Shown: positions 1,721 to 25,222, numbered from the stretch's first letter. The stretch is DNA of 25,222 nt from Burkholderiales bacterium (GCA_947371645.1 CANBQJ010000033.1:1-25222), one strand, 5' to 3'. The notes: generated by a model not told the origin, from the sequence alone. Made by a program: numbers and translations.

Positions 1721-1745
1721 GGACGTCTCCTGGGGGTTAATTATT

Positions 1746-1774: not shown

Positions 1775-1825
1775 TAACGCATTCAGTTAAGATGATGCGC
1801 ATCCAACCCCTTCGATGAGGCCCCC

Positions 1826-2257: not shown

Positions 2258-2273
2258 CGCCGCGACACCATGC

Positions 2274-2289: not shown

Positions 2290-2291
2290 AC

Positions 2292-3197: not shown

Positions 3198-3220
3198 GGT
3201 GATCGGATGTCTACCGTTCT

Positions 3221-3258
3221 GAACGAATTGGCATCTTATCCGAACGCATGGCGACTTT
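3221..3258. promoter_or_regulatory. Candidate AraC-type operator: direct repeat at 21-bp spacing
   Basis: GAACGAATTGGCATCTT (from 3221) and GAACGCATGGCGACTTT (from 3242) match at 11 of 17 positions, starting with an identical GAACG, and start exactly 21 bp apart. Two-turn spacing of direct repeats is the usual geometry for AraC-family operators. The pair sits in the gap between the divergent AraC and AhpD-like genes. No clear -10/-35 pair for the plus-strand gene is visible. This is a pattern-based call only. Confidence 0.35.
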
Positions 3259-3350
3259 TCATTCAGCCTTGACGCAGACACTGACTTCGTCGACGGGGCA
3301 AACAGCCCCCGACGAGACACCACCACAGACCACCCCCGAAAGGACACACC

Positions 3351-3887: not shown

Positions 3888-3912
3888 AGGCCGGGCGCAG
3901 TGCCTGGGCTGT

Positions 3913-5079: not shown

Positions 5080-5082
5080 CGC

Positions 5083-8700: not shown

Positions 8701-11700
8701 TGGGTGATGGCCTGCTGACGCAAGGTACCCAGCAAGGCATCGCCGGGCATGAGCGCGTCCCGGTCGGCCAGCACCAGGGTGGCGCCATGGCAGAGGGCCA
8801 TGGTCCATTCCCAGGTGCAGGCATCGAAGCTGGGCGACGCGAACTGCAGCACGCGGCTGCCAGGCTGCGGCTGGAAGGCATCGCCCAGCCACTGGGCCAG
8901 GTGGGCCAGGCCACCATGGGCCAAGGTCACGCCCTTGGGCAGGCCCGTGGAGCCGGAGGTGTAGATGACATAGGCCAGCTGATCGGCCAGGGCGTGGCGG
9001 GGCAAGGCAGCGGCGCGGGCGGCGGCCTGCATCCTGGCGCGCTCGGTGCCCCGTGCATGCGCAGACGGCGGCAGTTCGTCCACGCGACACAGCCGCACGG
9101 TCTGGCCAGCTTGCTGCGCCTGGCCTTGCAGGGCCAGGGCCAGCGGGGCGTGGGCGGCATCGGTCAGCAGCACGCGCGGGCGGGCATCGGCCACCATGTG
9201 TTGCAGGCGGGCCGGTGGGTAGTGCGGGTCCAGCGGCAGGTAAGCGCCACCGGCGCGCAGCGTGGCCAGCATGGCGGTGATGAGCGCCGGGCCCCGGTCC
9301 AGCGCAATGCCCACCAGGGCATCCGGACCCACACCCAGCTCGCGCAGGTGCAGGGCCAGGTGGGCGCTGTCGGCGTCCAGCTGGCCGTAGCTGATGGCCG
9401 CGTCTGCACCGTGCAGCGCGATGGCTTCGGGGTGGGCGTGGGCCTGTTGCAGGAAGGCCAGGTGTGCAGGCAGCGCCGGTCTGGCGGCCTGCTGCGCGGC
9501 CTGGCCGTGCGGGTTGAAGCCTTGCAGCACCTGCACCTGCTGGGCATCGCTCAACCAGGCCAGGCGGTGCAGGGGCAGCTGGGCGGGCGCGGCCACCAGG
9601 CTGTCGAGCAAGGTGAGCCAGTGGCCATGCCAGCGCGCCACAGTGGTTTCGTCCAGCACGGCGCTGGCGAACTCCAGCGTGCCGCGCAGTTCGCGAGCGC
9701 CGTCTTGCAGGCTCAAGGACAGGTCGAAGGGCGTGCCGCCTGGCGGGATGTCCACAGGGCTCAGGTGCAAGCCAGGCAGGCTGACTTCAGCCGAGGGCGT
9801 GTTGTTCAGGCTGAAGAGCACCTGGAAGATGGGCGCGTGCCGCAGGTCGCGCGGGGGCTGCACGGCCTCGACGATCTGGTCGAAAGGCAGGTCCTGGTGG
9901 GCGTAGGCCGTCAGCACGCTGTGCTTGAGCCGCTGCAGCCAGTCGCCCAGCAGGGCGTCGTCGTCCACAGGCGTCCGCAGGGGCAGCGTGTTGACGAAGA
10001 AGCCGATGAGCCCTTCCAGTTCGGGCTGGTTGCGGTTGGCCACGGGCGTGCCCACGACCACGTCGGGCTCACCACTCAGGCGCCGCAGGCACAGGGCCCA
10101 GGCCCCCAGCAAGAGCATGTGCAGGGTCACGCCATGGGCCTGGGCACATTGGCGCAAGGCCTCGCTGCGGGCGGCGCCCAGGGTCACCTGGAGGCGGCCA
10201 CCAGACTGGCTGTGGGTGGCGGGGCGGGGGCGGTCCAGCGGCAGAGGCAGCTCGGTGGGTGCACCGGCCAGAGCGGCTTGCCAGTGGCGAGCCTGTGCGG
10301 CCAGGTGCTCGCCGCTCAGGTGTTCTCGCTGCCACAGGGCGTGGTCGGCATACTGGATGGGCAGGGCAGGCAGAAACTGGCGCAGGGCCTGCGTGTCCAG
10401 GCCCGTGGCGGCGGCCTGGTAGAGCGCGGTCAGCTCGCCGACCAGCACGCCCATGGACCAGCCGTCGGTGACGATGTGGTGAAGGCTGAGCACCAGTTGG
10501 TGGCGCTGAACGCCGGCTTGGGGCCCGAGTTGCAAAAGGGCCGCGCGGCACAAGGGACCGGTGCGCAAGTCAAAGGGCTTGTGGAGCAGCGCCTGGCGTG
10601 CCGCGAGCGCGTCGGCCTCACCCGCCACGGCCAGCACCTGCAAGTCAAATGACCGCGCGGGCTCGATGCGCTGCACAGGCTGGCCGTCCTGCACGGGGAA
10701 GGTGGTGCGCAGGGCCTCGTGGCGCCACAAGACGGCGTCCAGGGCGGCCTGGAGCGCGGGCACGTTCAGGTCGCCGTCGAGCTGCAAGGCCACGGGCACG
10801 ACGTAGGCGTCGCCATCACCACCCAGCTGGTTCAGGAACCACAGGCGTTGCTGGGCCAGTGACAGCGGCGCGGTGAAGGTCTGGCGCTGACCTGTCCGAT
10901 CGGCACGGGCATGTGGGCGGCCTGCGGTCTTGCCAGGTGCACCGGTTGCGCCCAGCCCGGCGGCCACACCGGCGTCCACGGTGGCATCGATGTGGGCGGC
11001 CAGCGCAGCCAGGGTGGGCGTGTCGAAGACCTGGCGCAGTGGCAGCTGCACCTGCCAGCGGGCCTGCACACGGGCGGCCAGCTGCACCGCCAGCAGCGAA
11101 TGGCCGCCAAGGTCAAAGAAGCTCTGGTGACGGCCCACGGCAGCCACGTGCAGCAGCGCCTGCCACACCGCGCCCAGGGCCAGCTCGGTGTCGGTCTGCG
11201 GGGCCTCGTCTGCCGCCGTCACCTGGCTGGAGGCGGCCGGGGCAGGCAGCGCGCGGCGGTCCACCTTGCCGTTGGGGGTGAGGGGCAGCTCGTCCAGCAG
11301 CACCCAGGCGGTGGGCACCATGTAGTCGGGCAAGGTGGCGCGCAGGTGGCCACGCAAGGCCTCGAACAAGGCGGATTCATCGGTCTGAGCTGAGGCCGCA
11401 GCCGAGGTCACGTAGGCCACCAGACGCTTGTCGCCCGGGTGGTCTTCGCGCAGCATGACCAGGCCTTCGTGCAGGCCAGGCCAGCTCATCAGGCGGGCCT
11501 CGATCTCGCCGGGCTCGATGCGCAGGCCGCGCAGCTTGACCTGCTGGTCGTTGCGGCCCATGTGGTCCAGCACGCCGGGGGTGCGCCAGCGGCCCAGGTC
11601 GCCGGTGCGGTAGAGCAAGGCGCCCGCTTCATGAGGCTGGAAGGGGTCGCGCACGAAGTGGCTGGCGGTGAGCGCGGGCCGGTTCAGGTAGCCCAGGGCG

Positions 11701-14700
11701 ACGCCCGCGCCGCCGATGTAGACCTCGCCCACCACGCCCGGCGGCACGGGCCGCATGGCGTCGTCCAGCACCAGCACCTGGGTGGCGGCAATGGCCCGGC
11801 CAATGGGGATGCGGCGGGTTGCCGACTCGGCCACATCCGCTTCGGTGATGTGGTGCGATGTGGCAAAGGTGGTGGTCTCGGTGGGGCCGTAGACGTGCAG
11901 CAGCTGTTGCGGGCGGCCTCGGGCCCAGGTGCGGCGCACGGGCGTGGTGTCCAGGGTCTCGCCGCCAAAGAGCACGGCCTTCATGCGGGCAAAAGCCGGC
12001 GCCAGGGTGTCGGCGTGCAGGCCAAACAGCGCCGTGGTCATGAACATGATGCTCACCTCGTGGGTGAGCAGCGTCTGGGCCAATGCTTGCGGTGCCAGCA
12101 CCGTGTCCGCGTCCAGCACCACCAGGCTGGCGCCATTGAGCAGCGCGCCCCAGACCTCGAAGGTGGCCGCGTCAAAGGCCGGGTTGCTCAGGTGGGCCAG
12201 GCGGTCATCGGGCTGGATGTCCAGGTAGCCGTTGTCCACGGTGACGCGTGCGATGCCACGGTGCGGCACGCGCACGCCCTTGGGCTGGCCGGTGGAGCCG
12301 GAGGTGTACATCACACAGGCCACGCTGTCGGGGCCAAGCGTGTTGGGCGCGACGGGCGAGGAGGCCCGCGCGCCAGCGCCGCACAGGGCGATGGCATCGG
12401 CCTCCCGCCGCACGTCGATGAGGGGCAGCGCCGCCAGATCGGCCTCATCCCACGAGGGCTGCAGGCCATCGACGATGACGGCGCAGGCGCCGCTGTCTTG
12501 CAGCATGAAGGCTTGACGCGCCGCTGGGGTGTCCGGGGCAATGGGCAGGTAGCAGGCGCCCAGTTGCAACACGGCCAGTTCGGCCACGATGAGCGCAGTG
12601 CTGCGGCCCATGAGCAGGGCCACGGTCTGGCCGCCGCACGGCTCGACGCCGAGGCGCGCTTGAAGGTGCATGCCCAGGCAGCGGGCGCGGGTGTCCAGCT
12701 GGGCGTAGCTGAGCTGGGCGTCACCGTCGATGACCGCGATGGCATCCGGCTGGCGGGCCACTTGCAGTGCCCACAGGGCAGGCACGCTCAGAGCCTGGCG
12801 CGTGGTGACGTCGGGGCCCTGGCCTTGCTGAAGCCAGGAACGGGTCACGGCGGGGGGCAGCACATCCAGGGCCAGCACGTCCTGGGCTGAGGCATCTGGT
12901 GCGGGCATCGGGCGCAGGGCCTGCAGCAGCAGGCGCAAGGCCTGGAGCATGGCGTCCAGCACCACCCGGGCGCTGCGGTCGGCCTGCTGGCCTGCCCCTT
13001 GCAGCTGCGCGGTGAGCATGAAGCCTTCACCCAGGTCGTCCACCGACATCGCCAGCGGGAAGTTGCTGCGCTCCTGGCTGAAGACCATGGCGATGCCCGG
13101 CCAGAGGTCCTGTCCTGGCGTGCCCGGGCTGGCGCTGTGGCGGTAGTTGAGCACCGCGCTGAACAAGGGCTGGTCGCCCGCCACCTGGCTGCAACGCTGC
13201 ACCTGGGCCAGCGAGGCCTGCTCGTGCGGCAGCAGCGCCAGCAGCTCATGGTGCAGGTGCTGCACCAGCCCCGTGGCAGGCATGCCCGCCAGGCGAACGC
13301 GCAGCGGCAAGGTGTTGATGAACATGCCGATGACGCGGTCTGCACCGGCCAGGCCCTGCATGCGGCCAGACAGGATGGTGCCCAGCACCACGTCCTGGCG
13401 GCCAGACAGGCGGGCCACGACCAGGGCCCAGGCCGCGTGGGCCAAGGCCGCGCAGCTCACGCCCTGGGCCAGGGCGGCATCGCGCAAGGCCAGGGCGAGG
13501 CCGTCATCCAGCACGAGGCGGGCTTCGTCGACGCGGGCGGCACCGGCCTGGTGACCGGTGCTTGCGGGCGCGGCATCGGCCACAGCAGCATCGGCCAATG
13601 CGGCGGGCGCTGTGCCGTGCGCGTCCTGCAGCCCAAAGGGCGCCGTCCCTTCGTCCACATCGCCCAGGCGCTCGCGGAAAAAGGCCATGGCCGCGACCCC
13701 ATCGGCCTGCTGCAGGGCATGGGCCACAAAGTGGCGATACGGCACCGGCGCGGGCAAGGCCGCTGCCTGACCGGCCAGGCAGGCCTGGAGCTCGGCCAGC
13801 ACGATGTCTTGCGAGACGTGGTCGCTGACGATGTGGTGAACCTGAATGGCCACGTGGATGGGCCCCTGCGCAAGGCCTTCATCGGCGGGCCTGGCCACGG
13901 TCACGCGCAGCAGAGGCGCGGCCTGCAGGTCCAGCTGCTGCGGGCCGGCCAGCAGGGCCTGCAGACTGGCCAGCGGGTCTTGACCGGGCTGAGCGCGCAG
14001 CGTGAGCACGGGCAGCGCCGCGTGGCGCCAGACCACCTGCACGGCATGCGGCATGTCCACACCCAGGCGCTGTGGCCACACGAAAGACGTGCGGAGGATG
14101 TCGTGGCGGTCGATCACCTGCTGCAAGGCGGCCAGCAGGGCCTGCAGGCGTGCATCGCCGTCCAGGCGCAGGATGGTGGGCAGGATGTAGGGGTCGTCGG
14201 CCGGCCCCGACTCACCGTGCTGGGCCAGCAGGTGGTGGAAGAGGATGCCTTCTTGCAGCGGGGCCAGGGGGTAGATGTCCTGCACCTCGGGGGCGCCGCC
14301 CGGCACGGTGGCCACGACCGCGTCCAGCTGAGCCTGGCTGAGCCGACACAGGGGCAGCATGGCCGGGGTGAAGCGGTCCACAGCGGCGGTGTGGGTGCGC
14401 AAGCCAGGGCTGTCAGGCTGTGCATCCACAGGCAGCAGGGCCTGGGCCAGGTCCAGCAGGCGTGGCTGCTCGAAGACCTTGCGCACGGGCAGCTGCCAGC
14501 CGGCCTGACGCAGGCGCTCGACCATCTGCATGACCAGCAGGGAATGGCCCCCGAGCTCGAAGAAATGGTCGTGGCGGCCGATGGCCACGCCTTGCACGCG
14601 CGGCAGGATCTGCTGCCAGATGCCGGCCAACAAGGCCTCTTGAGGGCCCTGTGGCAGCTCATGGCGGCTGGCGGCGAAGGCCAGGCGGTCCGGCGCGGGC

Positions 14701-17700
14701 AAGGCCTGCTTGTTGACCTTGCCGTTGGGGGTAAGCGGCAGGCTGGGCAGGCAGACGATGGCCTGGGGCAGCATGAAGTCGGGCAGGGCCGCACCCAGAT
14801 GGGTGCGCAGGCGGGCCGTCAGCGCAGCGGTGGTCGCGGGGTCGGCGAGGCCACCGGCATCGGCCTCGTCCAGCACCACATAGGCCGTCAGGTGAGCTTG
14901 CCCAGGTTCGTCTTCGCGGCGCAGCACCACGGCTTCGCGCACGCCAGGCAGCTGGCCGATGCGGGTCTCGACCTCACCCAATTCGATGCGGAAACCACGC
15001 AGCTTGACCTGGTCGTCGTTGCGGCCCAGGTGTTCGATCTCGCCGGATGGCGTCCAGCGGCCGATGTCGCCAGTGCGGTAGAGGCGTGCGGACGCGGGTG
15101 GCGTGCCGGCCGCTGCAAAGGGGTCGGGCACGAAGCGCGATGCACTCAACTCAGGCTGGCCCAGGTAGCCTCGCCCCACCTGCAGCCCGCCGATGCAGAG
15201 CTCACCGGCCACGCCCACAGGCACAGGCCGCCCCTGGGCATCGAGGATGCGCACCAGGGTGCCGGCCCAGGGCTTGCCAATGCTCACGGCCTGGCCGGGT
15301 GTGGCCTCCGGTGGCTGCGCGGGCACGTCGGCCACGGTCGCAACGATGGTGGTCTCGGTCGGTCCATAGCTGTTGAGCAGCCGGGCATGCGCGCCAAAGC
15401 GGCGCTGCCAACGCTGCAAGGCCTGCGGGCTGGCGGCTTCGCCACCGATGACCAGCAGGCGCCAGGGCGGCACGCCTTGCAAGGCCTCTGGCAAGGCCAG
15501 CGCCTCATCACCGGCCATGGCCAGCGCGCGCCAGTAGGCTGTGGGCAGGCCCAGCACGCTGATGCGGCGGGCCACACAGGCCGCGATGAAGTCGCGCGGC
15601 GAGGCCAGCATGGCGTCGTCACGCAGCACAACGGTGGCGCCGGTGCACAGCGGCAGCACGGTCTCTTCGAAGGCGGCGTCAAAGCTGAGCGACGCAAACT
15701 GCAGCATGCGGTCGTCGGCGCGCAAGCCATAGCGTTGCTGCGCTGCGCTCACGTAGGCCGCGAGATTGCCGTGCGTGACCATCACGCCCTTGGGCTGGCC
15801 GGTCGAGCCCGACGTGAAGACCACATACGCCAGCGCGTCCAGCTGATCGTGGTCGGGCGACACCAGGTCTGTGGACAAGGCAAGAGCCTGGCCCACGTCA
15901 CACAGGCTGTCCACGGTGTGGGCGTGGGCCGTTGGCGCCAGTGACTGCAGGCGCGCCAGGCCGTCGGCATCAGCGATGAGGTGCTGCACGCCGGCTTGCT
16001 GCAGCATCTGCGCCAGCCGCTGATCGGGGTGGTTCAGGTCCAGCGGCAGGTAGGCCGCACCGGCCTGGAAGGTGCCCAGCATGGCCACGATCAGCTCGGG
16101 ACAACGCGGCAGGGCCACGGCCACGATGGCTTCGGGTGGCAGGCCCTGGTCACGCAAGGCACGGGCCAGGGCCGTGCTGCGGGCGTTCAGCTCACCATAG
16201 CTGAGCGTACGGCCGGCGGCTTCGATGGCCGGGTGATCGGGCTGCTGCAGCGCCATCTCGTGGATGCGGCGGTGCACGGGCAAGGCCAGGTGGCTGGCGG
16301 GCAGCGGCTCAGGCAGGGCGGGCAGCAGCTGCGCCAACTCGGCCTCGGGCAAGACGTGCAGGTCGCTCAGCAAGGTGTGGCCACCGTGCTGGGCGTCGTG
16401 CGTCAGGGCAGCCACCAGGTGCTGCAAGGCGGTCAGCATGCAGGCGTTCACGCGCTCTGCAGACACGGGCGAGCGGGCCTCGGTGCCGAGCGTGAAGCCA
16501 GCACCGGTGTCGTCCACCGACAGGGACACGGGGTAGTTGCTGTGCTCCAGGCTGGCGCGCACGCGCAGGCCATGCCAGCTGGCATCGGCAGCGCCGGCGG
16601 GCTGGCTGTGGCGGTAGTTCAACATCGCTGTGAACAGGGGCGCACCCGGGGCCACGGCGCTGCAGCGCAGGGCCAGCGCCAGGGGCGTTTGCTCAAAGGG
16701 CATGAGGTCTTGCAGGGCGCGGTGCGTGGCCTGCAGGCCCGCCTGCACGCTCACCGGCTCACCGGCCTGCTCACCCAGGTTCACGCGCAAGGGCAAGGTG
16801 TTGACGAACAGGCCCAGCACCTCGTGGGCACCGCTCAGGGCCTGCGCGGCTTGCATGCGCCCGGACATCACGGTACCAAACACCACGTCTTCGCGCCCGC
16901 TGCAACGCGCCACCACCAGGGCCCAGGCCAGGTGGCACAAGGCGGCCGGGCTCACGCCCGCCTGGCGTGACTGGGCGCGCAACTGGCGGGCCAGGTCGGC
17001 GGGCAGGTCCAGCGTGGCGGTTTGCGAGGCCTGCCCGTCGTCCCAGGTGTCCAGCAGGCCAAAGGGTGCGCTGCAGGTGTCCACGTCGCCCAGGCGGGCG
17101 CTGAAGAAGGCCTGCGCGGCCGCGTCGTCGCGGTGGCGCACGGCGTGGGCCACGAAGTCGGCATAGGCCACCGGCGCGGGCAGGCTGGCCTGGGCGTCGG
17201 CCTGGCCCACGTCACCCACACCGCCCATCAACACGGCCACTTCGGCCATCACCCGCTCCAGCGAGATGTGGTCGCACACCATGTGGTGCAGCTGCAGCAG
17301 CACCTGCAGGCCGTGGGTGTGCACCTGCAGCAGCGGGGCCCGCGTGAGGTCCATGCGCTGGGGAGCGTGGGCCAGGGCGGTGCTGGCGTCATCGCCTGCC
17401 CACAGGGCCTGCGGCCTCCTGTGCACGGGCAGCGGGGCCTCCCGGCACACCACCTGCACGGGCTGGCTCAGGCCCTGCCACTGGATGGCGGTGCGCAAGG
17501 CGTCGTGGCGGTTCACCACCCTTTGCAAGGCGCTCAGGAAGCGCTGCAGCGTGGCTTCATCCGCCACCTCCAGCAGCACGGGCAAGACATAGGCGTCTCG
17601 CCCTTCACCGTGCACCTGGTGGTGAAACAGCATGCCCTCTTGCAGCGGCGTCAGTGGGTGAATGTCTTGCACCTGCGGGGCGCCACCGGGCACGCGGGCC

Positions 17701-20700
17701 ACCACCTGGGCGATGTCATCGAGCGTGAGCGCCAACAGGGGCAGCATCTGCGGCTGGATCTGCGCGGTGCCGAGGGGCAGGCCGTGGCACGCGGCCAAGG
17801 CGCCAGGCGCCACGGCCTGAACCAGAGGGCGCAGGCGCAAGGCCAGGTCGGCCAGGGTGGGGGCGTTGAAGACGTCGTCCAGCGTCAGGCTCAGGCCCCT
17901 CTGGGCCAGTCGCTCGATCATGCGCACGATCAGCAGGGAGTGCCCACCCAGCTCGAAGAAGCGGTCGTGGCGGCTGAGCCGGGCCAGGCCCAGCAGCTCG
18001 CACCAGACGGCGGCCAGGGTCTGTTCGGCCTCGCCTTGGGGCTCGGCCTGCGGGGTCTCGCTGCCAGACAGGTCCGGTGCGGGCAGGGCGGCGCGGTCCA
18101 GCTTGCCATTGGGGGTGAGCGGCAACTGGTCCAGCACCATCACGCACGCAGGCAGCATGTGCTCGGGCAGGCGCAGGCGCAGTTGTGCGCGCAGGCTGCC
18201 GCCCGTGACCACATCGGCATCAGGCAAGGCATGGGCCAAGGCGTGCAAGGTGGCATAGGCGACCAGCTGGTCGCCAGCAGGCGCGGCGTGCAGCAGCACC
18301 ACCGCTTCACGCACGCCGGGGCAGGCCAGCAGGCGGGACTCGACCTCGCCCAGCTCGATGCGGAACCCGCGCAGCTTGACCTGGTGGTCGTTGCGGCCCA
18401 GGTAGTGCAGGCGGCCTTGGGCGTCCCAGCGGGCCAGATCGCCAGTCTTGTACAGGCGCTGCGGTCGGCCAAAAGGCGCGGCATGCACGAAGCGCTGGGT
18501 GCTGAGGTCCGGGCGGTGCAGGTAGCCGCGGGCCAGGGCCTCACCGCCGACGTAGACCTCGCCCACCGCGCCAATGGGCAAGGGCTGCATGTGGGCGCCC
18601 AGCACGTACAGCTGCACCCGTGGCCAGGGCTGGCCCAGGCTGAGGTCATCTCCTTGCAGGTCGGCCTCTGACACGGGGTGCCAGCTGACGCAGACCGAGG
18701 CCTCGGTGGGGCCATAGGCGTTGACCACACGCAGGCCTGCCTTGACGTAAGGCGCGACGGTGGCGGGTGCGCAGGCCTCGCCGCCCACGATGAGGGTTTG
18801 CAGGCTGTGCGCACTGCCCAGCTCGCTGGCGGCCAAGGCAGATGGGGTGAGCAGGGCGTGCGTGATGCGGCCGGCTTGCAGGGTCTGGCGCAAGGGGGCG
18901 CCCGGCATGAGCGCTTCGCGTGGCGCCAGGTGCAGGCAGGCACCGTGGCACAAGGCCATGAGCCATTCCCAGGCGCAGGCATCGAAGCTGGGCGAGGCCA
19001 GCTGCAGCACGCGGCTGCCGGTGCTCAGGCCCAAGGCCGGGGCGCTGGCCTGGGCCAGCTGGTACAGGCCACGGTGCGACACCATCACCCCCTTGGGCTC
19101 GCCGGTGGAGCCGGAGGTGTAGATCACATAGGCCAGGTCGTCCACATGCGGCGCCGGTGACTGGGTGGCTGCATGGGCTTCACCGCTGAAGGCGGTGCGG
19201 TCATCGTCCACCCAGAGCACAGCCGTGTGTGCGCCGGGCTGCAGGCGGTCGACCAGCTCGCCGTGGCCGTGGGCCGTCAGCAGGACCAAGGGCTGTGCAT
19301 CGGCCAGCATGAAGGCCAGGCGGGACACGGGGTAGACCGGGTCAAGAGGCAGGTAGGCGCCACCGGCCTTGAGCACGGCGAGCATGGACACGATGAGTGC
19401 GGGGCCGCGGTCTTGCAGCAAGGCCACGACGCGGTCAGGACCCACGCCTTGCGCGCGCAGGGTGGCGGCCAGCAGGTCGGCCTGGGCGTCCAGCTGGGCA
19501 TAAGTCCAGGTCTGTTGCTGCCAGCTCAGCGCGGCGGCTTGCGGGGTGCGCCGGGCCCAGTCGCCGATGCAGGCTTCCAGGCGGCGGGTTGCGGCCTCGC
19601 CATCCGAGGCCAGGGCCTGAGCTTGGGCATGGCTGTGGGCCTTCAAGGCGACCAGCTGGCCTTCGCTGAGCCAGGGCAGCCGGTGCCAGGGTGCTGGCGC
19701 CTGGTCGACCGATGGTCGCCTGGCCTCATCGGCCATCGCACCCAGCAGCGTGCGCAGGCTGTCTGCCCAGCGGGCGATGGTGGCCTCGTCAAACAAGGCG
19801 GTGGCGTATTCGATGGCGCCCACCAGCTCCGCACCACCCTGCCCTGCCCGCTCGTCGGGCGCGGTTTGCAGTTGCAGGCTGAGGTTGAGGTCAAAGGGCG
19901 TGCCCTGGCGGGGCCAGTCCACCTGCTCGGCTTGCCAGGGGCCGCCGGGCAAGCCCGTTCCCGGGGTGTTGTGCAGGGTCAGCGTGGTCTGGAAGATGGG
20001 GCTGTGGCTGAGGCTGCGCGCCGGTGCCAGGGCATCGACCAGCTGGTCAAAGGGCAAGGCCTGGTGGGCCAGCGCCGCCAGCGTGCGCTCGCGCACCTGG
20101 GCCAGCAGGCCATCGAGGCTCAGCCCTTCGGGCAGGCTCACGCGCATGGGCACGGTGTTGACGAAGCAGCCCACCACGCCTTCCAGCGCGGGCAGCGGCC
20201 GGTTGGCCACCGGGCTGCCGATGACGACCTCGTCTTGCGCGCTCAGGCGGGCCATCAACATGGCCCAGGCACTGAGCAAGACCATGTACAAGGTGGCACC
20301 GTGCTGCCCGGCCAGGCGCTGCAAGCCCGCCGTGGTGGCTGCGTCCACGCGCAGGCTCAGGTGGCGGCCGGCGTGACTGGGCATGGCCCCGCGTGGGTGG
20401 TCGGTGGGCAGGGCCAGCAGGGGCGGCGCGCCGTCCAGGGTGTGGCGCCACCAGGCCAGTTGCGCGGCCATGCGGGCAGCGTGCACGCCCTGCCCTTCCA
20501 GGCCGCGTTGCCACAGGGCGTAGTCGGGGTACTGCAGAGGCAGCGCCGGCAAGGTGTGCTCGCCATGGTCGTCAGACCACAGCTGGGTCAGCTCGTTCGT
20601 CAAGACGCCCATGGACCAGCCGTCGGCCACGATGTGGTGCAACACCACGCACAGCAGGTGGGTGTCTGCACGCAAGCGCCACAAGCGCACACGCAGCAGT

Positions 20701-23700
20701 GGGCCCTGGGCCAGGTCGAAGGGGGCCAGCAACTCGTCCGACCGGCCCGCCAGCAGCTGGGACACGGCCTCGGCGCTGGGCACCTGCTCGCGCCAAGAGC
20801 CGCTGAGGTCCACCGCCGTGAGGGTCAGGGGCTGGGCGGCATCGACGTGCTGCACGGGCTGGCCATCGACCACGGGGAAGCGGGTGCGCAGGCCTTCATG
20901 GCGTTGCACCAGGGCATTCAGGCTGGCCTGCAGGCGGGCCAGGCCAGCGCTGCCCATGGGGCCCCGCAGCAGCAGGGCCAGGGGCAGCACGTAAGCGCGC
21001 CGGGCCTGAGGGAACTGGTCCACGAACCACATGCGTTGCTGCGCCCAGGACAGCGGCAGCGGGGCATCCGGGGCGACCGGCGGGTGGCGCAGGTGGCGGG
21101 CCTGCAGGTGGCCCGCTTGTTCGATGCCATGGGGCGTTGGGGCAGCAGCCGCTTGCTGGCCATCACCGGGGCCGGCCGCATCGGCTGCCACGGCCTGTGC
21201 CGATGCCGCCTGGGGCAGGCGCGCTTCGATCTGCATGGCCATGTCACCCAGGGCCGGATGACCGAACACCGCTTGCAGGGGCAGCTCGATCGCCCATTGC
21301 GCCTGGACGCGGCCCAGCAGCTGCACGGCACGCAGGCTGTGCCCGCCCAGGTCCATGAAGGACGTGTGCATGCCGATGCGCTGCGTGGCAGGCAAGCCCA
21401 GCACCTCGGCCCACAAGCGGGCCAGCTGCGCGGCCACCGGGCTCAGGGTGTCGCGCTCAGCGTGGTCGCCTGCAGGCCCTGGGTGGGCGGCCGCGTCGGG
21501 CAGGTGCAAGGCCTGGCGGTCCACCTTGCCGTTGGGCGTGAGCGGCAGCCGGGGCACTTGCACCAACACGGCCGGCACCATGGGGGCGGGCAAGGCCTGG
21601 CGCAGGGCGTGGCGCAGGGCGTCCAGCGGCAGGGTGGCAACGGCGTCGCTGGCGACCAGCCACGCGGCCAGCAGCGGCTCGCCCAGCGCGTCTGTGCGCA
21701 AGGCCACAACCGCGTCTCGCACGCCAGGCTGTTGCATCAGGTGGTGAGCCACCTCGTCGGTTTCGATGCGGTGGCCCCGCAGCTTGATCTGCGTGTCGGC
21801 ACGTCCCAGGAAAGCCAGCGTGCCATCCGCTCGCCAGCAACCCAGGTCACCCGTGCGGTAAAGCCGCTGAGCAGGCCTGCCCGTTGGGGCCTCGGGATCG
21901 GGCACAAAGCGCGCTGCGCTCAGTTCAGGCTGATGCAGGTAGCCGAGGGCCAGACCAGGGCCGGCGATGCAGATTTCGCCCACGGCGCCTTGCGGCAAGC
22001 GACGCTGATGGCCATCGACCACGCGCACCTCGACACGGCCAATTGGGCGGCCGATGGGCAGCGAAGCGGCGCGCGCGTCACGCTGCGGATCGCATTCATG
22101 GAGGGTGGCACACACCGTGCCTTCGGACGGCCCGTAGGCATTGACGAAGCGGCGGCCCTGAGCCCAGCGCTGCATGAGCAGCGGCGGGCAGGCTTCGCCA
22201 GCGACCAGCAGCACGCGCAAGGGCTCACCGACTTGCTCAGGGTCCATGGCAGAGAGGGCCACGGGCGGCAAGGTGACGTGCGTGATCCCACGCTGGCCCA
22301 GCAAGGCTTGCAAAGGCGCGCCAGGCATGATGGCTTCGCGTGGGGCCAGGTGCAGCGCGGCACCTTGCGTCAGGGCCATCAGCCATTCGAAGGCAAAGGC
22401 ATCAAAGCCTTGCGCGGCGAATTGCAGCACGCGGTCGCCGGGGCCCATGGAGAAGGCATGGGCCTGAGCCGTGGCCAGGTGCCACAAGCCGCCATGGCTG
22501 ACCATCACGCCCTTCGGTCGGCCGGTGGAGCCGGAGGTGTAGACCACATAGGCCAGGTCGTCTGGCCGCGGTGGCGTGGCGGCCTGCGCCTCACAGGCCG
22601 GCGCGTGGGCATCCGGCAGAGGCCTGGCCTCGTCGCGCACGTGAGCGTCTGCGCTGAGCCACATCGTGGGCAAGGCGCCATCGGGCAGGCTGGCGGCCAG
22701 CGCGGCATGCACCTCGCCCAAGGCCTCATGGGCCAGCAGCAAGGCGGGGCGGGCGTCCGCCCACATCTGCTGCAGGCGTGCGGCGGGGTAGCTGGCGTCG
22801 AGCACCAGGTAGGCCGCGCCCGCGTGCAAGGTCGCCAGCACGGCCACGATGGACGCGGCCTCACGGGGCATCAGCAAGGCCACGATGGGGAGACTGACGG
22901 CCGTGTCCGGCGGCGAAGCGGCCTGCGCGCCAATGGCCAGGGCCACACGCATGCGGGCGGCCAAGGCCTGAGCCTGTTCGTTCAGCTGCGGATACGTGCG
23001 TTCACCGTGTGCGTCGTGCAAGGCCACGGCCTGCGGATTTGCACGGGCCATGCGGGCCACACGCTGATGGACAGGCTCGAAATCGGCATCGTCGATGGCC
23101 ACGTCGTGCGAACGCTCCAGGGCCTGCAGCCTTGCCAGTTCTGCAACCGGCAAGCCCAGGCCATGCACCGGGGCACCTTCACCCGCCGCTGCGGTGGCAT
23201 CCAGTTGGGCGCAGAGCTTGTCGACGGCATGCAGCACCCAGGCCATGACGCGCTCAGGCGCCACGCCGCTTTGGCCATCCAGCGCGCCGGGCAGTCGGGT
23301 CTGCACGCTGAACATGAAGCCTTCGCCCAGGTCGTCCACGCTCAGCGAGAAAGGGTAGTTGCTGCGCTCTTCGCTGTGCAGCAGGCTCAGTTCACCGGGC
23401 CGCCCCAGCTCGGGGGCCAGCACGTCGGCGCTGGTGTGGCGGTAGTTGAGCACGGCGCTGAACAAGGCCTGGCCAGGCGGCAGCGCGCTGCAGCGCAGGG
23501 CATCGGCCAACGATGCCTGCTCATGCGCCAGCAGGCCCACCAGGCCCTGGCGGGCCCGTTGCAGCAGGGTGAGCAAATCTGGCGCATCCGACCAGTTCAG
23601 GCGCCAGGGCAAGGTGTTGATGAACAGGCCCAGGGCGCGGTCCAGGCCGGCAGACGCAGAGGGGTCGGCGTCGTCACCGCCGTGCATGCGGCCTGAGAGC

Positions 23701-25222
23701 ACCGTGCCCAGCACCACGTCGTCGCGCCCGCTGCACAGGCCCACCACCCAGGCCCAGGCCACGTGGCACAGCACGGCGGGGCTCAGGCCCAGGCGTCGGC
23801 CGTGGCCCCGCAGGGCCTGAGCCTGTGAGGTGGACAGGTGGTGCCGGTGCTCGCCAATGTCGCGCCCAGCCACCTGCACGTCGCTCAGACCCAGGGGCCA
23901 GGTGGGGGTGTCGACATCGCCCAGCAAGGCACTGAAATGGCCCCGCGCGGCATCGGGTGTCTGCGCCAGTGCGCGGGCCACGAAGCCACGGTAAGGCACG
24001 GCCGGCGGCAGTTGCGTCACCGGCGTGCCGGCCAGCAGGGCTTGCAGCTCGCTCAGCAGCACAGCCTGAGACACGTGGTCGCACACCAGGTGGTGCATCT
24101 GCACGACCACGCGCCAGCGGGCGTCGTCAGGCAAGTCACCCCAGGCCGCGTGCGGCGGCACCAGGATCACACGGCCCAGCGGGGCCTCGGCCAGGGCCAG
24201 TGCGGGCACCGGCTGGAGGCCGTCCAGCACGGGCAAGGTGGCCTGGCGGTGCACCACCTGCAGCGGGCGGGGCAGGCCTTGCCACCACAGGCTGGTGCGC
24301 AGCGCGTCGTGGCGGTCCACCAGGTTTTGCAGCGCCTGCAGGAAGCGCGACACGGCCGCCCGGTCTGCCGCGGCAAAGACCATGGGCAGCAGGTAGCCGT
24401 CAGGGGCCGCTTGTGCGCCTTCGGCTGGCGCGGCGCCCGCGCCGAGCAGCCGGTGAAAGAGCATGCCCTCTTGCAGCGGCGTGAGCGGGTAGATGTCTTG
24501 CACCGACGCCGGGCTGTGGCCGGTGCGGGCACACCAGGCCTGCAGCAGCTCGTCGGTGAGGCCGGCCTGGCGGGCCAGGGGCAGGTGGTCCAGGTGGATG
24601 CGGCGGGCATCGTGCGGCACACCGTGTGCCACGTCGCTTGACGACTGAGCAAGCAGGTTCACCGGCCGGGCACACGCGGCCAGCTCGGACAGGCGGCCGT
24701 GTTCCAGCACCTCGCGCACCTGCACCACCCAGCCCTGCTGGCGCAGCCGCTCGACCATCTGCACGACCAGCAACGAGTGGCCGCCCAGTTCGAAGAAATG
24801 CGCGTGCCGGCCGACCTGCGGCAGGCCGATGAGTTCGCACCAGATGGCGGCCAGCGCCTGCTCGATGGGGCCCTGGGGTGCGTCGTCGGTGACCGGCCTG
24901 GCCAGCGCAAGCGCTGCCACCGGCGAGAGCACCGGCGCACGGGCTGCCCGCAAAGGCCGCTCGCCTTCGGGCCAGATGTGCAGCTGTGCCGGGGCCACTG
25001 CGCCCGGGGCTTGCGCCAGCGCATCGGCCAGCGCCTGCAAGGCCCGGCACATCAGCGCGTTGACCTGCGCGGCCCGGGCGGGTGCACGGGCCTGGGTGGT
25101 CAAGGCCAGGTCCAGGCCGTAGTCGTCCACCGACAAGGTCAGGGGGTAGTTGGTGCGCTCCAGGCTGGCCAGCACCTGCACGCCCGTCAGGTCGCGCAGG
25201 CCCTGCTGCTCCTGGGCGCTGT
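5763..25222 (-). CDS. Giant non-ribosomal peptide synthetase, N-terminus outside window
   Basis: One open frame of 19,460 bases runs from the right edge to the stop at 5763-5765 with no interruption, giving about 6,485 visible residues. The frame is open through 25222. The GTG at 25181 falls inside a condensation domain and is not a start. Domain order: C/E(end)-T, C/E-A-T, C-A-T, C/E-A-T, C/E-A-T, C-A-T-TE-TE. All six carrier domains keep the phosphopantetheine serine in LGGHSL (S136, 1282, 2415, 3547, 4695, 5846). All five A domains keep the TSGSTG loop and the A10 lysine in NGK. There is no stand-alone E domain: D-residues are expected from the dual C/E domains. No MbtH helper gene is nearby. 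The enzyme is cytosolic and multi-modular. Nearly repeated domain DNA makes misassembly possible. The product is not identified. Confidence 0.97.
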   Translation of the reverse strand, partial: SAQEQQGLRDLTGVQVLASLERTNYPLTLSVDDYGLDLALTTQARAPARAAQVNALMCRALQALADALAQAPGAVAPAQLHIWPEGERPLRAARAPVLSPVAALALARPVTDDAPQGPIEQALAAIWCELIGLPQVGRHAHFFELGGHSLLVVQMVERLRQQGWVVQVREVLEHGRLSELAACARPVNLLAQSSSDVAHGVPHDARRIHLDHLPLARQAGLTDELLQAWCARTGHSPASVQDIYPLTPLQEGMLFHRLLGAGAAPAEGAQAAPDGYLLPMVFAAADRAAVSRFLQALQNLVDRHDALRTSLWWQGLPRPLQVVHRQATLPVLDGLQPVPALALAEAPLGRVILVPPHAAWGDLPDDARWRVVVQMHHLVCDHVSQAVLLSELQALLAGTPVTQLPPAVPYRGFVARALAQTPDAARGHFSALLGDVDTPTWPLGLSDVQVAGRDIGEHRHHLSTSQAQALRGHGRRLGLSPAVLCHVAWAWVVGLCSGRDDVVLGTVLSGRMHGGDDADPSASAGLDRALGLFINTLPWRLNWSDAPDLLTLLQRARQGLVGLLAHEQASLADALRCSALPPGQALFSAVLNYRHTSADVLAPELGRPGELSLLHSEERSNYPFSLSVDDLGEGFMFSVQTRLPGALDGQSGVAPERVMAWVLHAVDKLCAQLDATAAAGEGAPVHGLGLPVAELARLQALERSHDVAIDDADFEPVHQRVARMARANPQAVALHDAHGERTYPQLNEQAQALAARMRVALAIGAQAASPPDTAVSLPIVALLMPREAASIVAVLATLHAGAAYLVLDASYPAARLQQMWADARPALLLAHEALGEVHAALAASLPDGALPTMWLSADAHVRDEARPLPDAHAPACEAQAATPPRPDDLAYVVYTSGSTGRPKGVMVSHGGLWHLATAQAHAFSMGPGDRVLQFAAQGFDAFAFEWLMALTQGAALHLAPREAIMPGAPLQALLGQRGITHVTLPPVALSAMDPEQVGEPLRVLLVAGEACPPLLMQRWAQGRRFVNAYGPSEGTVCATLHECDPQRDARAASLPIGRPIGRVEVRVVDGHQRRLPQGAVGEICIAGPGLALGYLHQPELSAARFVPDPEAPTGRPAQRLYRTGDLGCWRADGTLAFLGRADTQIKLRGHRIETDEVAHHLMQQPGVRDAVVALRTDALGEPLLAAWLVASDAVATLPLDALRHALRQALPAPMVPAVLVQVPRLPLTPNGKVDRQALHLPDAAAHPGPAGDHAERDTLSPVAAQLARLWAEVLGLPATQRIGMHTSFMDLGGHSLRAVQLLGRVQAQWAIELPLQAVFGHPALGDMAMQIEARLPQAASAQAVAADAAGPGDGQQAAAAPTPHGIEQAGHLQARHLRHPPVAPDAPLPLSWAQQRMWFVDQFPQARRAYVLPLALLLRGPMGSAGLARLQASLNALVQRHEGLRTRFPVVDGQPVQHVDAAQPLTLTAVDLSGSWREQVPSAEAVSQLLAGRSDELLAPFDLAQGPLLRVRLWRLRADTHLLCVVLHHIVADGWSMGVLTNELTQLWSDDHGEHTLPALPLQYPDYALWQRGLEGQGVHAARMAAQLAWWRHTLDGAPPLLALPTDHPRGAMPSHAGRHLSLRVDAATTAGLQRLAGQHGATLYMVLLSAWAMLMARLSAQDEVVIGSPVANRPLPALEGVVGCFVNTVPMRVSLPEGLSLDGLLAQVRERTLAALAHQALPFDQLVDALAPARSLSHSPIFQTTLTLHNTPGTGLPGGPWQAEQVDWPRQGTPFDLNLSLQLQTAPDERAGQGGAELVGAIEYATALFDEATIARWADSLRTLLGAMADEARRPSVDQAPAPWHRLPWLSEGQLVALKAHSHAQAQALASDGEAATRRLEACIGDWARRTPQAAALSWQQQTWTYAQLDAQADLLAATLRAQGVGPDRVVALLQDRGPALIVSMLAVLKAGGAYLPLDPVYPVSRLAFMLADAQPLVLLTAHGHGELVDRLQPGAHTAVLWVDDDRTAFSGEAHAATQSPAPHVDDLAYVIYTSGSTGEPKGVMVSHRGLYQLAQASAPALGLSTGSRVLQLASPSFDACAWEWLMALCHGACLHLAPREALMPGAPLRQTLQAGRITHALLTPSALAASELGSAHSLQTLIVGGEACAPATVAPYVKAGLRVVNAYGPTEASVCVSWHPVSEADLQGDDLSLGQPWPRVQLYVLGAHMQPLPIGAVGEVYVGGEALARGYLHRPDLSTQRFVHAAPFGRPQRLYKTGDLARWDAQGRLHYLGRNDHQVKLRGFRIELGEVESRLLACPGVREAVVLLHAAPAGDQLVAYATLHALAHALPDADVVTGGSLRAQLRLRLPEHMLPACVMVLDQLPLTPNGKLDRAALPAPDLSGSETPQAEPQGEAEQTLAAVWCELLGLARLSRHDRFFELGGHSLLIVRMIERLAQRGLSLTLDDVFNAPTLADLALRLRPLVQAVAPGALAACHGLPLGTAQIQPQMLPLLALTLDDIAQVVARVPGGAPQVQDIHPLTPLQEGMLFHHQVHGEGRDAYVLPVLLEVADEATLQRFLSALQRVVNRHDALRTAIQWQGLSQPVQVVCREAPLPVHRRPQALWAGDDASTALAHAPQRMDLTRAPLLQVHTHGLQVLLQLHHMVCDHISLERVMAEVAVLMGGVGDVGQADAQASLPAPVAYADFVAHAVRHRDDAAAQAFFSARLGDVDTCSAPFGLLDTWDDGQASQTATLDLPADLARQLRAQSRQAGVSPAALCHLAWALVVARCSGREDVVFGTVMSGRMQAAQALSGAHEVLGLFVNTLPLRVNLGEQAGEPVSVQAGLQATHRALQDLMPFEQTPLALALRCSAVAPGAPLFTAMLNYRHSQPAGAADASWHGLRVRASLEHSNYPVSLSVDDTGAGFTLGTEARSPVSAERVNACMLTALQHLVAALTHDAQHGGHTLLSDLHVLPEAELAQLLPALPEPLPASHLALPVHRRIHEMALQQPDHPAIEAAGRTLSYGELNARSTALARALRDQGLPPEAIVAVALPRCPELIVAMLGTFQAGAAYLPLDLNHPDQRLAQMLQQAGVQHLIADADGLARLQSLAPTAHAHTVDSLCDVGQALALSTDLVSPDHDQLDALAYVVFTSGSTGQPKGVMVTHGNLAAYVSAAQQRYGLRADDRMLQFASLSFDAAFEETVLPLCTGATVVLRDDAMLASPRDFIAACVARRISVLGLPTAYWRALAMAGDEALALPEALQGVPPWRLLVIGGEAASPQALQRWQRRFGAHARLLNSYGPTETTIVATVADVPAQPPEATPGQAVSIGKPWAGTLVRILDAQGRPVPVGVAGELCIGGLQVGRGYLGQPELSASRFVPDPFAAAGTPPASARLYRTGDIGRWTPSGEIEHLGRNDDQVKLRGFRIELGEVETRIGQLPGVREAVVLRREDEPGQAHLTAYVVLDEADAGGLADPATTAALTARLRTHLGAALPDFMLPQAIVCLPSLPLTPNGKVNKQALPAPDRLAFAASRHELPQGPQEALLAGIWQQILPRVQGVAIGRHDHFFELGGHSLLVMQMVERLRQAGWQLPVRKVFEQPRLLDLAQALLPVDAQPDSPGLRTHTAAVDRFTPAMLPLCRLSQAQLDAVVATVPGGAPEVQDIYPLAPLQEGILFHHLLAQHGESGPADDPYILPTILRLDGDARLQALLAALQQVIDRHDILRTSFVWPQRLGVDMPHAVQVVWRHAALPVLTLRAQPGQDPLASLQALLAGPQQLDLQAAPLLRVTVARPADEGLAQGPIHVAIQVHHIVSDHVSQDIVLAELQACLAGQAAALPAPVPYRHFVAHALQQADGVAAMAFFRERLGDVDEGTAPFGLQDAHGTAPAALADAAVADAAPASTGHQAGAARVDEARLVLDDGLALALRDAALAQGVSCAALAHAAWALVVARLSGRQDVVLGTILSGRMQGLAGADRVIGMFINTLPLRVRLAGMPATGLVQHLHHELLALLPHEQASLAQVQRCSQVAGDQPLFSAVLNYRHSASPGTPGQDLWPGIAMVFSQERSNFPLAMSVDDLGEGFMLTAQLQGAGQQADRSARVVLDAMLQALRLLLQALRPMPAPDASAQDVLALDVLPPAVTRSWLQQGQGPDVTTRQALSVPALWALQVARQPDAIAVIDGDAQLSYAQLDTRARCLGMHLQARLGVEPCGGQTVALLMGRSTALIVAELAVLQLGACYLPIAPDTPAARQAFMLQDSGACAVIVDGLQPSWDEADLAALPLIDVRREADAIALCGAGARASSPVAPNTLGPDSVACVMYTSGSTGQPKGVRVPHRGIARVTVDNGYLDIQPDDRLAHLSNPAFDAATFEVWGALLNGASLVVLDADTVLAPQALAQTLLTHEVSIMFMTTALFGLHADTLAPAFARMKAVLFGGETLDTTPVRRTWARGRPQQLLHVYGPTETTTFATSHHITEADVAESATRRIPIGRAIAATQVLVLDDAMRPVPPGVVGEVYIGGAGVALGYLNRPALTASHFVRDPFQPHEAGALLYRTGDLGRWRTPGVLDHMGRNDQQVKLRGLRIEPGEIEARLMSWPGLHEGLVMLREDHPGDKRLVAYVTSAAASAQTDESALFEALRGHLRATLPDYMVPTAWVLLDELPLTPNGKVDRRALPAPAASSQVTAADEAPQTDTELALGAVWQALLHVAAVGRHQSFFDLGGHSLLAVQLAARVQARWQVQLPLRQVFDTPTLAALAAHIDATVDAGVAAGLGATGAPGKTAGRPHARADRTGQRQTFTAPLSLAQQRLWFLNQLGGDGDAYVVPVALQLDGDLNVPALQAALDAVLWRHEALRTTFPVQDGQPVQRIEPARSFDLQVLAVAGEADALAARQALLHKPFDLRTGPLCRAALLQLGPQAGVQRHQLVLSLHHIVTDGWSMGVLVGELTALYQAAATGLDTQALRQFLPALPIQYADHALWQREHLSGEHLAAQARHWQAALAGAPTELPLPLDRPRPATHSQSGGRLQVTLGAARSEALRQCAQAHGVTLHMLLLGAWALCLRRLSGEPDVVVGTPVANRNQPELEGLIGFFVNTLPLRTPVDDDALLGDWLQRLKHSVLTAYAHQDLPFDQIVEAVQPPRDLRHAPIFQVLFSLNNTPSAEVSLPGLHLSPVDIPPGGTPFDLSLSLQDGARELRGTLEFASAVLDETTVARWHGHWLTLLDSLVAAPAQLPLHRLAWLSDAQQVQVLQGFNPHGQAAQQAARPALPAHLAFLQQAHAHPEAIALHGADAAISYGQLDADSAHLALHLRELGVGPDALVGIALDRGPALITAMLATLRAGGAYLPLDPHYPPARLQHMVADARPRVLLTDAAHAPLALALQGQAQQAGQTVRLCRVDELPPSAHARGTERARMQAAARAAALPRHALADQLAYVIYTSGSTGLPKGVTLAHGGLAHLAQWLGDAFQPQPGSRVLQFASPSFDACTWEWTMALCHGATLVLADRDALMPGDALLGTLRQQAITHATLPPVALSAMAVSPAQLASPEPGATCPPHLPALHTLVVAGESCPPAVAKAWSAGRRFFNAYGPTEGTVCATVHEVQADTVALDQPLPIGQPLPYARCLVLDAHGQPQPIGVAGELCIGGAALASGYLNQPELTAQRFVPDPFPSAGMAAMQASPRLYRTGDWACWNAQGQLVFLGRRDEQVKLRGLRIELNEIASQLQRQPGVREAMALVQGHGADAVLLAFACPQATSTQPDEGDAAVQARAWAQASSADWLAALRQNLPAHMLPACVIGVVAWPLTPNGKVDKAALLALATASGAQPGPDFGAEPGDGPATEGPLTPLEQTLCLLWQETLGLPGACGRHAHFFELGGHSLSAARLMSRVQALGLNLPLSAVFTHATPAAMAELAGLQALNTPALPALPPEAAGVQLVPLRHGGQRAPLFLLHDISGSVLPYLPLARSLEGDRPLLGLALADGLAAPELAAMGSLHELAMRHAAAIRCAQPHGPYHLAGWSAGGLLAQDVAAQLRQAGEAVAYVGLLDAPWPDAPAADSAPDLATTTRQAILAFVSRQIEASGATPDVQVQLASLVDPVAHPDLGTVLQALSTSPWWPRGAKVDTLREMAARTAQLVRMVGQHQVAQADLTLHYVAAAPATGLHASQATQPIDTWQAQWHTRWGRALHTSRVPADHAHMLAPAAAAQLANVMDAALDAAAGEASPWVVIQAGRAGVTPWLCVPGAGANVTCFVALAQALGPDVPVYGLQPRGLDRDEAPYASVEAAAAAFVQACHRHHLAGPVHVLGHSFGGWIACELAQRLSAQGWPVASLNLVDSMAPSAQGPRHGAVRGLDALLALHGLLAQQCGHDMGLNRELLTPLTPEARVQRLQQAMREAGLLGAGPAAAQCAQLTRLLAVFEANLNTGYVPAHDLSVPTRLLRAAELRPSEKGGVADRTQGWRLYARIASDTVLPGNHMTMLQAPQVQALAQALLVPVSAMTAHQEAR
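5771..5776 (-). promoter_or_regulatory. Strong Shine-Dalgarno inside the NRPS 3' end for the TetR gene
   Basis: AGGAGG on the minus strand lies in the last codons of the NRPS gene, four bases before the ATGA that is both TetR start and NRPS stop. It fixes the TetR start at 5766. It would also allow TetR translation to restart or begin independently of ribosomes finishing the very long NRPS frame. Confidence 0.8.
5787..6614 (-). other. NRPS thioesterase domain TE2 (tandem)
   Basis: A second alpha/beta-hydrolase domain spans about residues 6190-6465, only a few residues after TE1. The nucleophile is S6275 in GHSFGG, the likely acid is D6302 in NLVDSM, and the likely His is H6442 in GNHMTML. 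Its sequence is quite different from TE1 (start WLCVPGAGANVTCFVAL), so it is not a fresh duplication. Tandem TEs are known from arthrofactin, massetolide and lysobactin synthetases, where one TE cyclises and the other helps turnover or editing. The division of labour here is unknown. Confidence 0.88.
6636..7484 (-). other. NRPS thioesterase domain TE1
   Basis: This alpha/beta-hydrolase release domain spans about residues 5900-6182. The nucleophile is S5987 in GWSAGG. The acid is probably D6014 in LLDAPW, and the His is probably H6162 in DHAHML. The oxyanion region reads LFLLHDISGS. It directly follows the terminal carrier, the usual place of a type I TE that cyclises or hydrolyses the peptide. 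All three catalytic residues look intact, so it should be active. Confidence 0.88.
7527..10874 (-). other. NRPS module 6 (terminal): C(LCL)-A(Phe)-T
   Basis: The condensation domain (about 4770-5212) is the ordinary type, with LSLAQQRLWFLNQL and HHIVTDGWSMG from 4901. The A domain (about 5237-5783) has YTSGSTGLPKG at 5407-5417. Code residues D5453, A5454, W5457, T5496, V5532, A5534, A5555, V5563, C5564 and K5777 give DAWTVAAVCK. It differs from the GrsA phenylalanine code only by two Ile-to-Val changes, so phenylalanine is a good prediction for the last residue. The A domain carries an extra Ala/Gln-rich insert near 5370-5400 and another near 5721-5745. The carrier (about 5811-5885) has FELGGHSLSAARL with S5846 and feeds the two thioesterases. 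Confidence 0.88.
10971..14375 (-). other. NRPS module 5: C/E-A(Ile/Val)-T
   Basis: The C/E domain (about 3603-4108) has LFHHLLAQHG (H3649, H3650) and HHIVSDH at 3782-3788. An Ala-rich insert around 3856-3880 is longer than in the sister domains. The A domain (about 4128-4648) has YTSGSTGQPKG at 4292-4302 and a pocket loop AFDAATFEVWGALLNGA. Code residues D4337, A4338, F4341, F4380, L4404, G4406, V4430, T4438, F4439 and K4639 give DAFFLGVTFK. This is very like published Ile and Val codes such as DGFFLGVVYK and DAFWIGGTFK, so an aliphatic beta-branched residue is likely. The carrier (about 4662-4737) has FFDLGGHSLLAVQL with S4695. The next domain is an ordinary C domain, so this residue should stay L. 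Confidence 0.86.
14430..17765 (-). other. NRPS module 4: C/E-A(unassigned)-T
   Basis: The C/E domain (about 2473-2945) carries both His motifs: LFHHQVHGEGRD from 2518 (H2520, H2521) and HHMVCDH at 2632-2638. The A domain (about 2963-3497) belongs to a different subgroup from its neighbours. Core A3 is FTSGSTGQPKG (3122-3132) and the pocket loop is SFDAAFEE. Code residues D3168, A3169, E3172, G3211, V3244, G3246, S3271, I3279, V3280 and K3488 give DAEGVGSIVK. A Glu at the third position occurs in some codes for basic residues, but I know no close match and leave the substrate open. The carrier (about 3511-3584) has FELGGHSL with S3547. The following C/E domain predicts a D-residue. Confidence 0.85.
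17817..21065 (-). other. NRPS module 3: C(LCL)-A(hydrophobic)-T
   Basis: The condensation domain (about 1373-1845) is of the ordinary L-to-L type, with LSWAQQRMWFVDQF at its start and HHIVADGWSMG at 1515. The A domain (about 1865-2369) has YTSGSTGEPKG at 2021-2031. Code residues D2067, A2068, W2071, L2110, I2131, G2133, A2155, V2163, C2164 and K2360 give DAWLIGAVCK. Its framework closely resembles the A domains of modules 2 and 6 (SPSFDACAWEWLMALCHGA, LMPGAPL), but the pocket differs from a Phe pocket at two key places (Thr to Leu, Ala to Gly). I predict a hydrophobic substrate, Leu or a related residue, with low certainty. The carrier (about 2384-2455) has FELGGHSL with S2415 and is followed by a C/E domain, so the residue is expected to be D. 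Confidence 0.85.
21216..24608 (-). other. NRPS module 2: C/E-A(Phe-like)-T
   Basis: The C/E domain (about 192-690) has the catalytic motif HHLVCDH (363-369). Its extra N-terminal His motif, which marks dual C/E domains, reads LFHRLL: the second His is Arg (R244), and a long Ala/Gly-rich insert precedes DGYLL. The A domain (about 701-1228) has YTSGSTGRPKG at 881-891. The code positions (D927, A928, F931, T970, L992, A994, A1015, V1023, C1024, K1219) give DAFTLAAVCK, close to the GrsA phenylalanine code DAWTIAAICK, so an aromatic or bulky hydrophobic residue is likely. The carrier (about 1245-1322) has the variant MDLGGHSL with S1282. The next module starts with an ordinary C domain, so this residue should stay L. 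Confidence 0.85.
24666..25222 (-). other. NRPS module 1 (partial): end of C/E domain plus carrier, no A domain
   Basis: The visible sequence begins in the C-terminal part of a condensation domain. ERTNYPLTLSVDD matches the equivalent segment of the C/E domains of modules 2, 4 and 5 (for example ERSNYPFSLSVDD). It ends at LHIWPEGER, the counterpart of LHVLPEAEL in module 4. In module 4 an A domain begins within about 20 residues of that point. Here a short linker (about residues 76-103) leads straight to a carrier domain (about 104-172) with intact FFELGGHSL (S136). About 500 residues of A domain are therefore absent. The linker piece VAALALARPV resembles the residues that follow the A10 lysine elsewhere, suggesting in-frame loss of an A domain. 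The carrier may be loaded in trans, act as a relay, or be skipped. Confidence 0.85.

What the first reader, a model, noticed from the sequence alone, without database searches (positions are those of the whole stretch)
24666..25222. NRPS module without an adenylation domain (C-T only)
Seen: the end of a C/E-type domain (up to LHIWPEGER) is followed after a linker of about 28 residues by an intact carrier domain. Every other visible module has about 500 residues of A domain there. The linker segment VAALALARPV looks like the residues just after the A10 lysine of the other modules, as if an A domain had been cut out in frame. Known: A-less modules exist and are loaded in trans, loaded by a neighbouring A domain, or skipped. 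Inference: this line may make a peptide one residue shorter than its module count, or recruit a separate A domain.
Basis: partly seen in the sequence, partly recalled or inferred. Interest (0 to 1): 0.72.

Follow-up and report, generated by a model that had tools for sequence, protein, structure and literature searches.

The report
Peptide-synthetase module lacking its activation domain
One unit of a giant bacterial peptide-making enzyme has a condensation end and a carrier but no amino-acid-activating domain, although two related bacteria show one at the same spot; units like this are already known, and the joint lies too close to the end of the sequence to rule out an assembly error.

Summary
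The NRPS ORF (5763-25220, minus strand, 6485 aa, open at the window end) has six carriers and five A domains. The first carrier (24672-24860) follows the end of a C domain with about 23 unassigned residues between, and no A10 motif is recognisable. Two Aquabacterium relatives fix the context. P0095 is collinear over aa 114-6471 at 49% identity, and P0048 carries the matching module in full. Both have A-domain sequence before the orthologous carrier, and the window's 88-residue C end matches that P0048 module best of 656 C-domain ends. So this is module 3 of a probable eight-module line, minus its A domain. No repeat in the visible sequence would explain an assembly collapse. However, the joint lies only about 0.27-0.33 kb from the window end, no whole genome is held and no reads are available, so an artefact is not excluded (about 0.3). 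The carrier and the next C domain are about as conserved as in intact modules, which fits continued use, a recent loss or an artefact. A-less C-T modules are known (SyrE, CmnI, Cal19). P0048's A3 has the same specificity code as A5 of this line, so I favour loading by A5 or a separate A domain; skipping is the main biological rival.

The parts
5763..25220 (-). NRPS ORF, 6485 aa, 5' end beyond the window; modules numbered 3-8 by alignment with P0048
24951..25220 (-). C-terminal end of condensation domain C3 (about aa 1-90); the rest lies outside the window
   Evidence: best of 656 C-domain ends in the fetched proteins is P0048 position 2590, module 3
24882..24950 (-). Ala/Pro-rich joint (about aa 91-113) where relatives have A-domain sequence
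24672..24860 (-). carrier (T) domain of module 3 with intact LGGHSL Ser site
   Evidence: Pfam PF00550, motif
23151..24533 (-). condensation domain C4 (limits by eye), active-site motif HHLVCDH
   Evidence: PF00668, best stretch about aa 366-638; motif
21471..23078 (-). adenylation domain A4 (limits by eye), code DAFTLAAVCK
   Evidence: PF00501; code (GrsA template recalled)
18066..19598 (-). adenylation domain A5 (limits by eye), code DAWLIGAVCK, identical to the code of A3 in relative P0048: candidate donor for the orphan carrier
   Evidence: motifs; code
5766..7508 (-). last part of ORF: tandem thioesterase domains (upper limit by eye)
   Evidence: PF00975 and Abhydrolase matches

Best explanation
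This is module 3 of a probable eight-module NRPS line of Aquabacterium-like Burkholderiales whose A domain has been lost in frame, leaving C3 fused to carrier T3. Shown: the A-less anatomy, A-domain sequence in front of the same carrier in two relatives, an intact reading frame, an intact carrier Ser motif, and ordinary conservation of T3 and C4. Inferred: the loss is real, and T3 is still filled, by another A domain acting across modules (best candidate A5 of the same polypeptide) or by a separate A protein encoded elsewhere, so that the peptide keeps its length.
For: P0095 aligns collinearly with window aa 114-6471 at 49% identity and begins with A8-A10 sequence before its first carrier. P0048 has a full C3-A3-T3, and the window's C end (aa 1-88) matches that C3 best of 656 ends in the fetched proteins (191 against 174 for the next). 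T3 is 58% identical to its P0095 ortholog (the five other carriers 46-65%) and C4 55% (the four other C domains 56-61%). P0048's A3 and A5 have the code DAWLIGAVCK, as have A5 of the window and of P0095. Precedent: CmnA-A1 loads the A-less CmnI carrier in trans (PMC12400406; abstract, passages and part 1 of 2 of section 4 seen). The longest exact word that the joint region (24840-25010) shares with the window elsewhere is 14 nt, and in the 6 repeat families of at least 50 nt found in the ORF no copy exceeds 91% identity to its reference.
Against: The joint is only about 0.27-0.33 kb from the window end, where assembly errors are likeliest, and no fetched protein was seen to show an orthologous A-less joint. 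No donor A domain was tested. T3 is no more like T5 (53%) than like T6 (58%). The code of the missing A domain rests on P0048 alone; P0095 starts after its A3 code. Conservation of T3 and C4 fits a very recent loss or an artefact equally well. The C end is also fairly like the window's own C6 end (46%; 51% to P0048 C3).
Confidence: 0.37

Rival explanations
1. Assembly or sequencing artefact: the genome has an A3 domain and the contig end was joined wrongly.
For: Both relatives have A-domain sequence there; the joint is about 0.3 kb from the window end; P0095 as deposited also starts inside its A3 domain, for a reason not known here (contig end, frame break or start call).
Against: Frame is kept across the joint (one in three by chance); the C end matches the orthologous C3 best; A domains in the window are 36-49% identical to each other, so no near-identical repeat is seen to cause collapse; longest shared exact word 14 nt; GC3 is similar on both sides (0.92 and 0.88). 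The missing A3 itself cannot be inspected.
Confidence: 0.3
2. Real loss, and module 3 is skipped: the chain passes over T3 and the peptide is one or more residues shorter, or truncated shunt products appear.
For: Engineered deletion of A6 in plipastatin synthetase gave module-skipped products, and deletion of A7 gave truncated peptides (PMC5984369, abstract and passages seen).
Against: T3 and C4 show no relaxed conservation against P0095; in that engineered case the simple one-residue omission was not obtained.
Confidence: 0.18
3. Real loss that inactivated the line; the gene is a young pseudogene.
For: A lost A domain would block elongation at module 3 unless compensated (inference).
Against: 6485 codons stay open with intact carrier motifs and HH-type C motifs.
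Confidence: 0.15

Closest known systems
CmnI / VioI (capreomycin, viomycin), A-less module 3
   Same: module without A; the carrier is loaded by another module's A domain (shown for CmnI)
   Different: CmnI is a separate protein; here the module is internal to a giant polypeptide and relatives show A-domain sequence at that place (PMC12400406)
Cal19 C-PCP didomain of the WS9326A line
   Same: A-less C-T module followed by a further module
   Different: two stand-alone trans A domains encoded in the cluster are essential (PMC7539972, passages); none seen in this window
SyrE module 9 (syringomycin)
   Same: A-less module in a large NRPS
   Different: terminal C-T-Te completed by SyrB1 A-T (PMC8949500, passages); here internal, no A-T protein seen
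Plipastatin synthetase with A6 or A7 deleted by engineering
   Same: an internal module left as C-T after A-domain removal
   Different: engineered, not natural; gave skipped (A6) or truncated (A7) products (PMC5984369, abstract and passages)
P0194 (unnamed JGI protein, 1715 aa)
   Same: C-domain end joined to a carrier without A
   Different: the C-T is at the C terminus of a smaller protein; not the same place by my reading of its domain order

Membership tests
A-less NRPS module (C-T) | carrier with intact Ser attachment motif | tested here: met
   LGGHSL at aa 145; PF00550
A-less NRPS module (C-T) | no A domain between C and T | tested here: met
   only PP-binding found in aa 1-215; no A10 motif
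A-less NRPS module (C-T) | complete, active C domain upstream | tested here: inconclusive
   only about 90 C-terminal residues lie in the window
Trans-loaded A-less module (CmnI, Cal19 type) | a partner A domain loads the carrier | not testable with these tools
   needs a loading assay; A5 is a code-based candidate only
Split module (SyrB1/SyrE type) | stand-alone A or A-T protein in the cluster | tested here: inconclusive
   none in 12 of 23 listed ORFs reaching into 1-5763; upstream sequence and genome not held
Skipped module (plipastatin A6 deletion type) | product lacks the residue | not testable with these tools
   no product data

The most novel reading that the evidence does not exclude
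A natural loss of the A domain from an internal module, compensated within the same polypeptide: the A domain of module 5, with the same specificity code as A3 of the relative P0048, charges two carriers, T5 and T3, so the peptide is unchanged although a domain is gone.
Probability: 0.17. Interest if true: 0.62.

Novelty: new member of a known kind. Interest (0 to 1): 0.36.

Why it matters
If real, it is a natural counterpart of laboratory A-domain deletions, with relatives that keep the domain for comparison. That would make it directly testable whether an orphan carrier is rescued by a same-specificity A domain in the same enzyme or is skipped, which bears on the collinearity rule used to predict products from NRPS genes.

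Tried and rejected
Own-genome search: no genome held. The genome-contig scan with the C-T part gave two loci, Duganella and Trinickia, matching the carrier region alone. Searching 399 genomes of one order for the thioesterase end gave 6 matches at E 1e-40 or better, 32-40% identity, none an ortholog by my reading. A search of the protein database with the thioesterase end gave 15 proteins of the allowed length; P0095 is best at 39%, the rest 29-36%. A search for shorter proteins listed 120 of 937 hits; among them only P0194 showed a C-T joint by my A10 test, not at the orthologous place. Plasmid megablast gave 28 records, best 3% of the query covered. The code DAWLIGAVCK is in no paper of the library, nor DAWLIGAV anywhere in text. 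Paper searches gave the precedents cited or nothing further that I used; (Aquabacterium with NRPS or lipopeptide, 8 of 962 listed) listed no paper that mentions Aquabacterium. Considered and rejected: a random chimeric C-domain end (it matches C3 of P0048 best; the window's own C ends were compared only); a post-A10 remnant in the linker. My first C-end matrix missed P0048's C3 because the pattern was too strict; one search used a wider one.

Full report
The window holds one NRPS gene on the minus strand, 5763-25220, 6485 codons without a stop and open at the window end. Motifs and Pfam give carriers at aa 145, 1291, 2424, 3556, 4704 and 5855, A domains in front of the last five only, and tandem thioesterase domains at the end. 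The first 215 residues contain, by Pfam, only a carrier; the first 90 or so are the end of a C domain by similarity to other C-domain ends.

Relatives give the context. Of 822 proteins found with aa 1-700 (120 listed), P0095 and P0048, both labelled Aquabacterium MAGs, have the highest identities listed, 49% and 47%. P0095 matches window aa 114-6471 in one collinear alignment at 49%. As deposited it begins with the A8-A10 part of an A domain before its first carrier; why it starts there is not known. P0048 runs from C1-A1-T1 to a cut A6 (my reading of motifs), and window aa 72-3065 aligns with its residues 3161-6043 at 48%. The window's C-domain end (aa 1-88) scores 191 against the end of P0048's third C domain and 174 against the next best of 656 ends in the fetched proteins; P0095 does not reach its own C3. 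Inside the window the nearest C end is that of C6 (46%). So the C end and the carrier both correspond to module 3, and what is missing is the A domain between them. Joining the two relatives' orders suggests eight modules; this is inferred, as no single protein here shows all eight.

The joint itself. In 866 A-T linkers an A10 motif was recognised in 750, and in 649 of these its lysine lies 34 residues before the conserved Trp. The corresponding residue here is Ala 93, with no motif near it. C-side similarity runs patchily to about aa 90 and carrier-side similarity starts at aa 114; between them only P100 (+3.9) clearly fits the post-A10 profile. The stretch between is Ala/Pro-rich and I cannot assign it.

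Is it an artefact? For: the joint is about 0.27-0.33 kb from the window end, and both relatives have A-domain sequence there. Against: the frame is kept; GC3 is 0.92 before and 0.88 after (0.81 in aa 86-116); the longest exact word that the joint region shares with the window elsewhere is one of 14 nt, whose two copies (24848 and 25025) lie on either side of the joint; A domains in the window are 36-49% identical in protein; and in the 6 repeat families of at least 50 nt found in the ORF no copy exceeds 91% identity to its reference. The missing A3 itself cannot be inspected for repeats. I put an artefact at about 0.3.

Is the module still used? Against P0095, T3 is 58% identical and the other five carriers 46-65%; C4 is 55% and the four other C domains 56-61%. 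Against P0048, T3 and T4 are both 51% and T5 55%; C4 and C5 are both 55%. There is no sign of decay, which fits use, a recent loss, or an artefact.

What could load T3? P0048's A3 and A5 are both DAWLIGAVCK. DAWTVAAVCK is predicted as Phe in PMC9866976, and the near-identical DAFFLGVTYK as Ile (one passage); no paper in the library holds DAWLIGAVCK. An A domain with the code of the relative's A3 thus still exists in the same polypeptide. T3 is 53% identical to T5 and 58% to T6, so carrier similarity does not single out A5. Of 23 listed ORFs of at least 100 aa reaching into 1-5763 (NRPS frame not counted) I scanned 12; they show a TetR-type regulator, an FtsX-like permease, an AraC-type regulator, an ArsR-type regulator on the other strand, an RND adaptor and part of an RND pump, but no A domain.

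Precedents. CmnI is loaded across modules by CmnA-A1 (PMC12400406); the line with Cal19 needs two stand-alone A domains (PMC7539972); SyrE's last module is completed by SyrB1 (PMC8949500); engineered A6 deletion in plipastatin synthetase led to skipping and A7 deletion to truncation (PMC5984369). Among 813 motif-defined carriers in 240 fetched proteins only P0194 was, by eye, a C-T joint of this kind; these proteins were chosen for similarity to the window and are not a census, and the permissive A10 pattern could hide others. The finding is thus a further member of a known kind, with the useful feature that relatives keep the domain.

Noticed in passing
5766-7508 (-): The synthetase ends in tandem thioesterase domains, shared with P0095 (39%) and, at 29-36% identity, with synthetases of Xenorhabdus, Massilia, Pseudomonas, Burkholderia and others.
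   Followed up: partly
3-5763: Genes beyond the 3' end of the NRPS gene: TetR-type regulator, FtsX-like permease, AraC-type regulator with cupin domain, RND adaptor and part of an AcrB-type pump, plus an ArsR-type regulator on the plus strand.
   Followed up: no
P0035, P0049, P0062, P0082 (fetched proteins): Carrier-to-carrier spacings of 200-278 residues flagged by the script come from GG[DA]S matches inside A domains, not from A-less modules (sequences).
   Followed up: yes
24381-24503 (-): C4 begins VQDIYPLTPLQEGMLFHR followed by an Ala-rich stretch, where P0048 has LFHHLMGEQAQDDAY; it may be a dual epimerisation/condensation domain (motif recalled, not tested), so residue 3 may be D-configured.
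   Followed up: no
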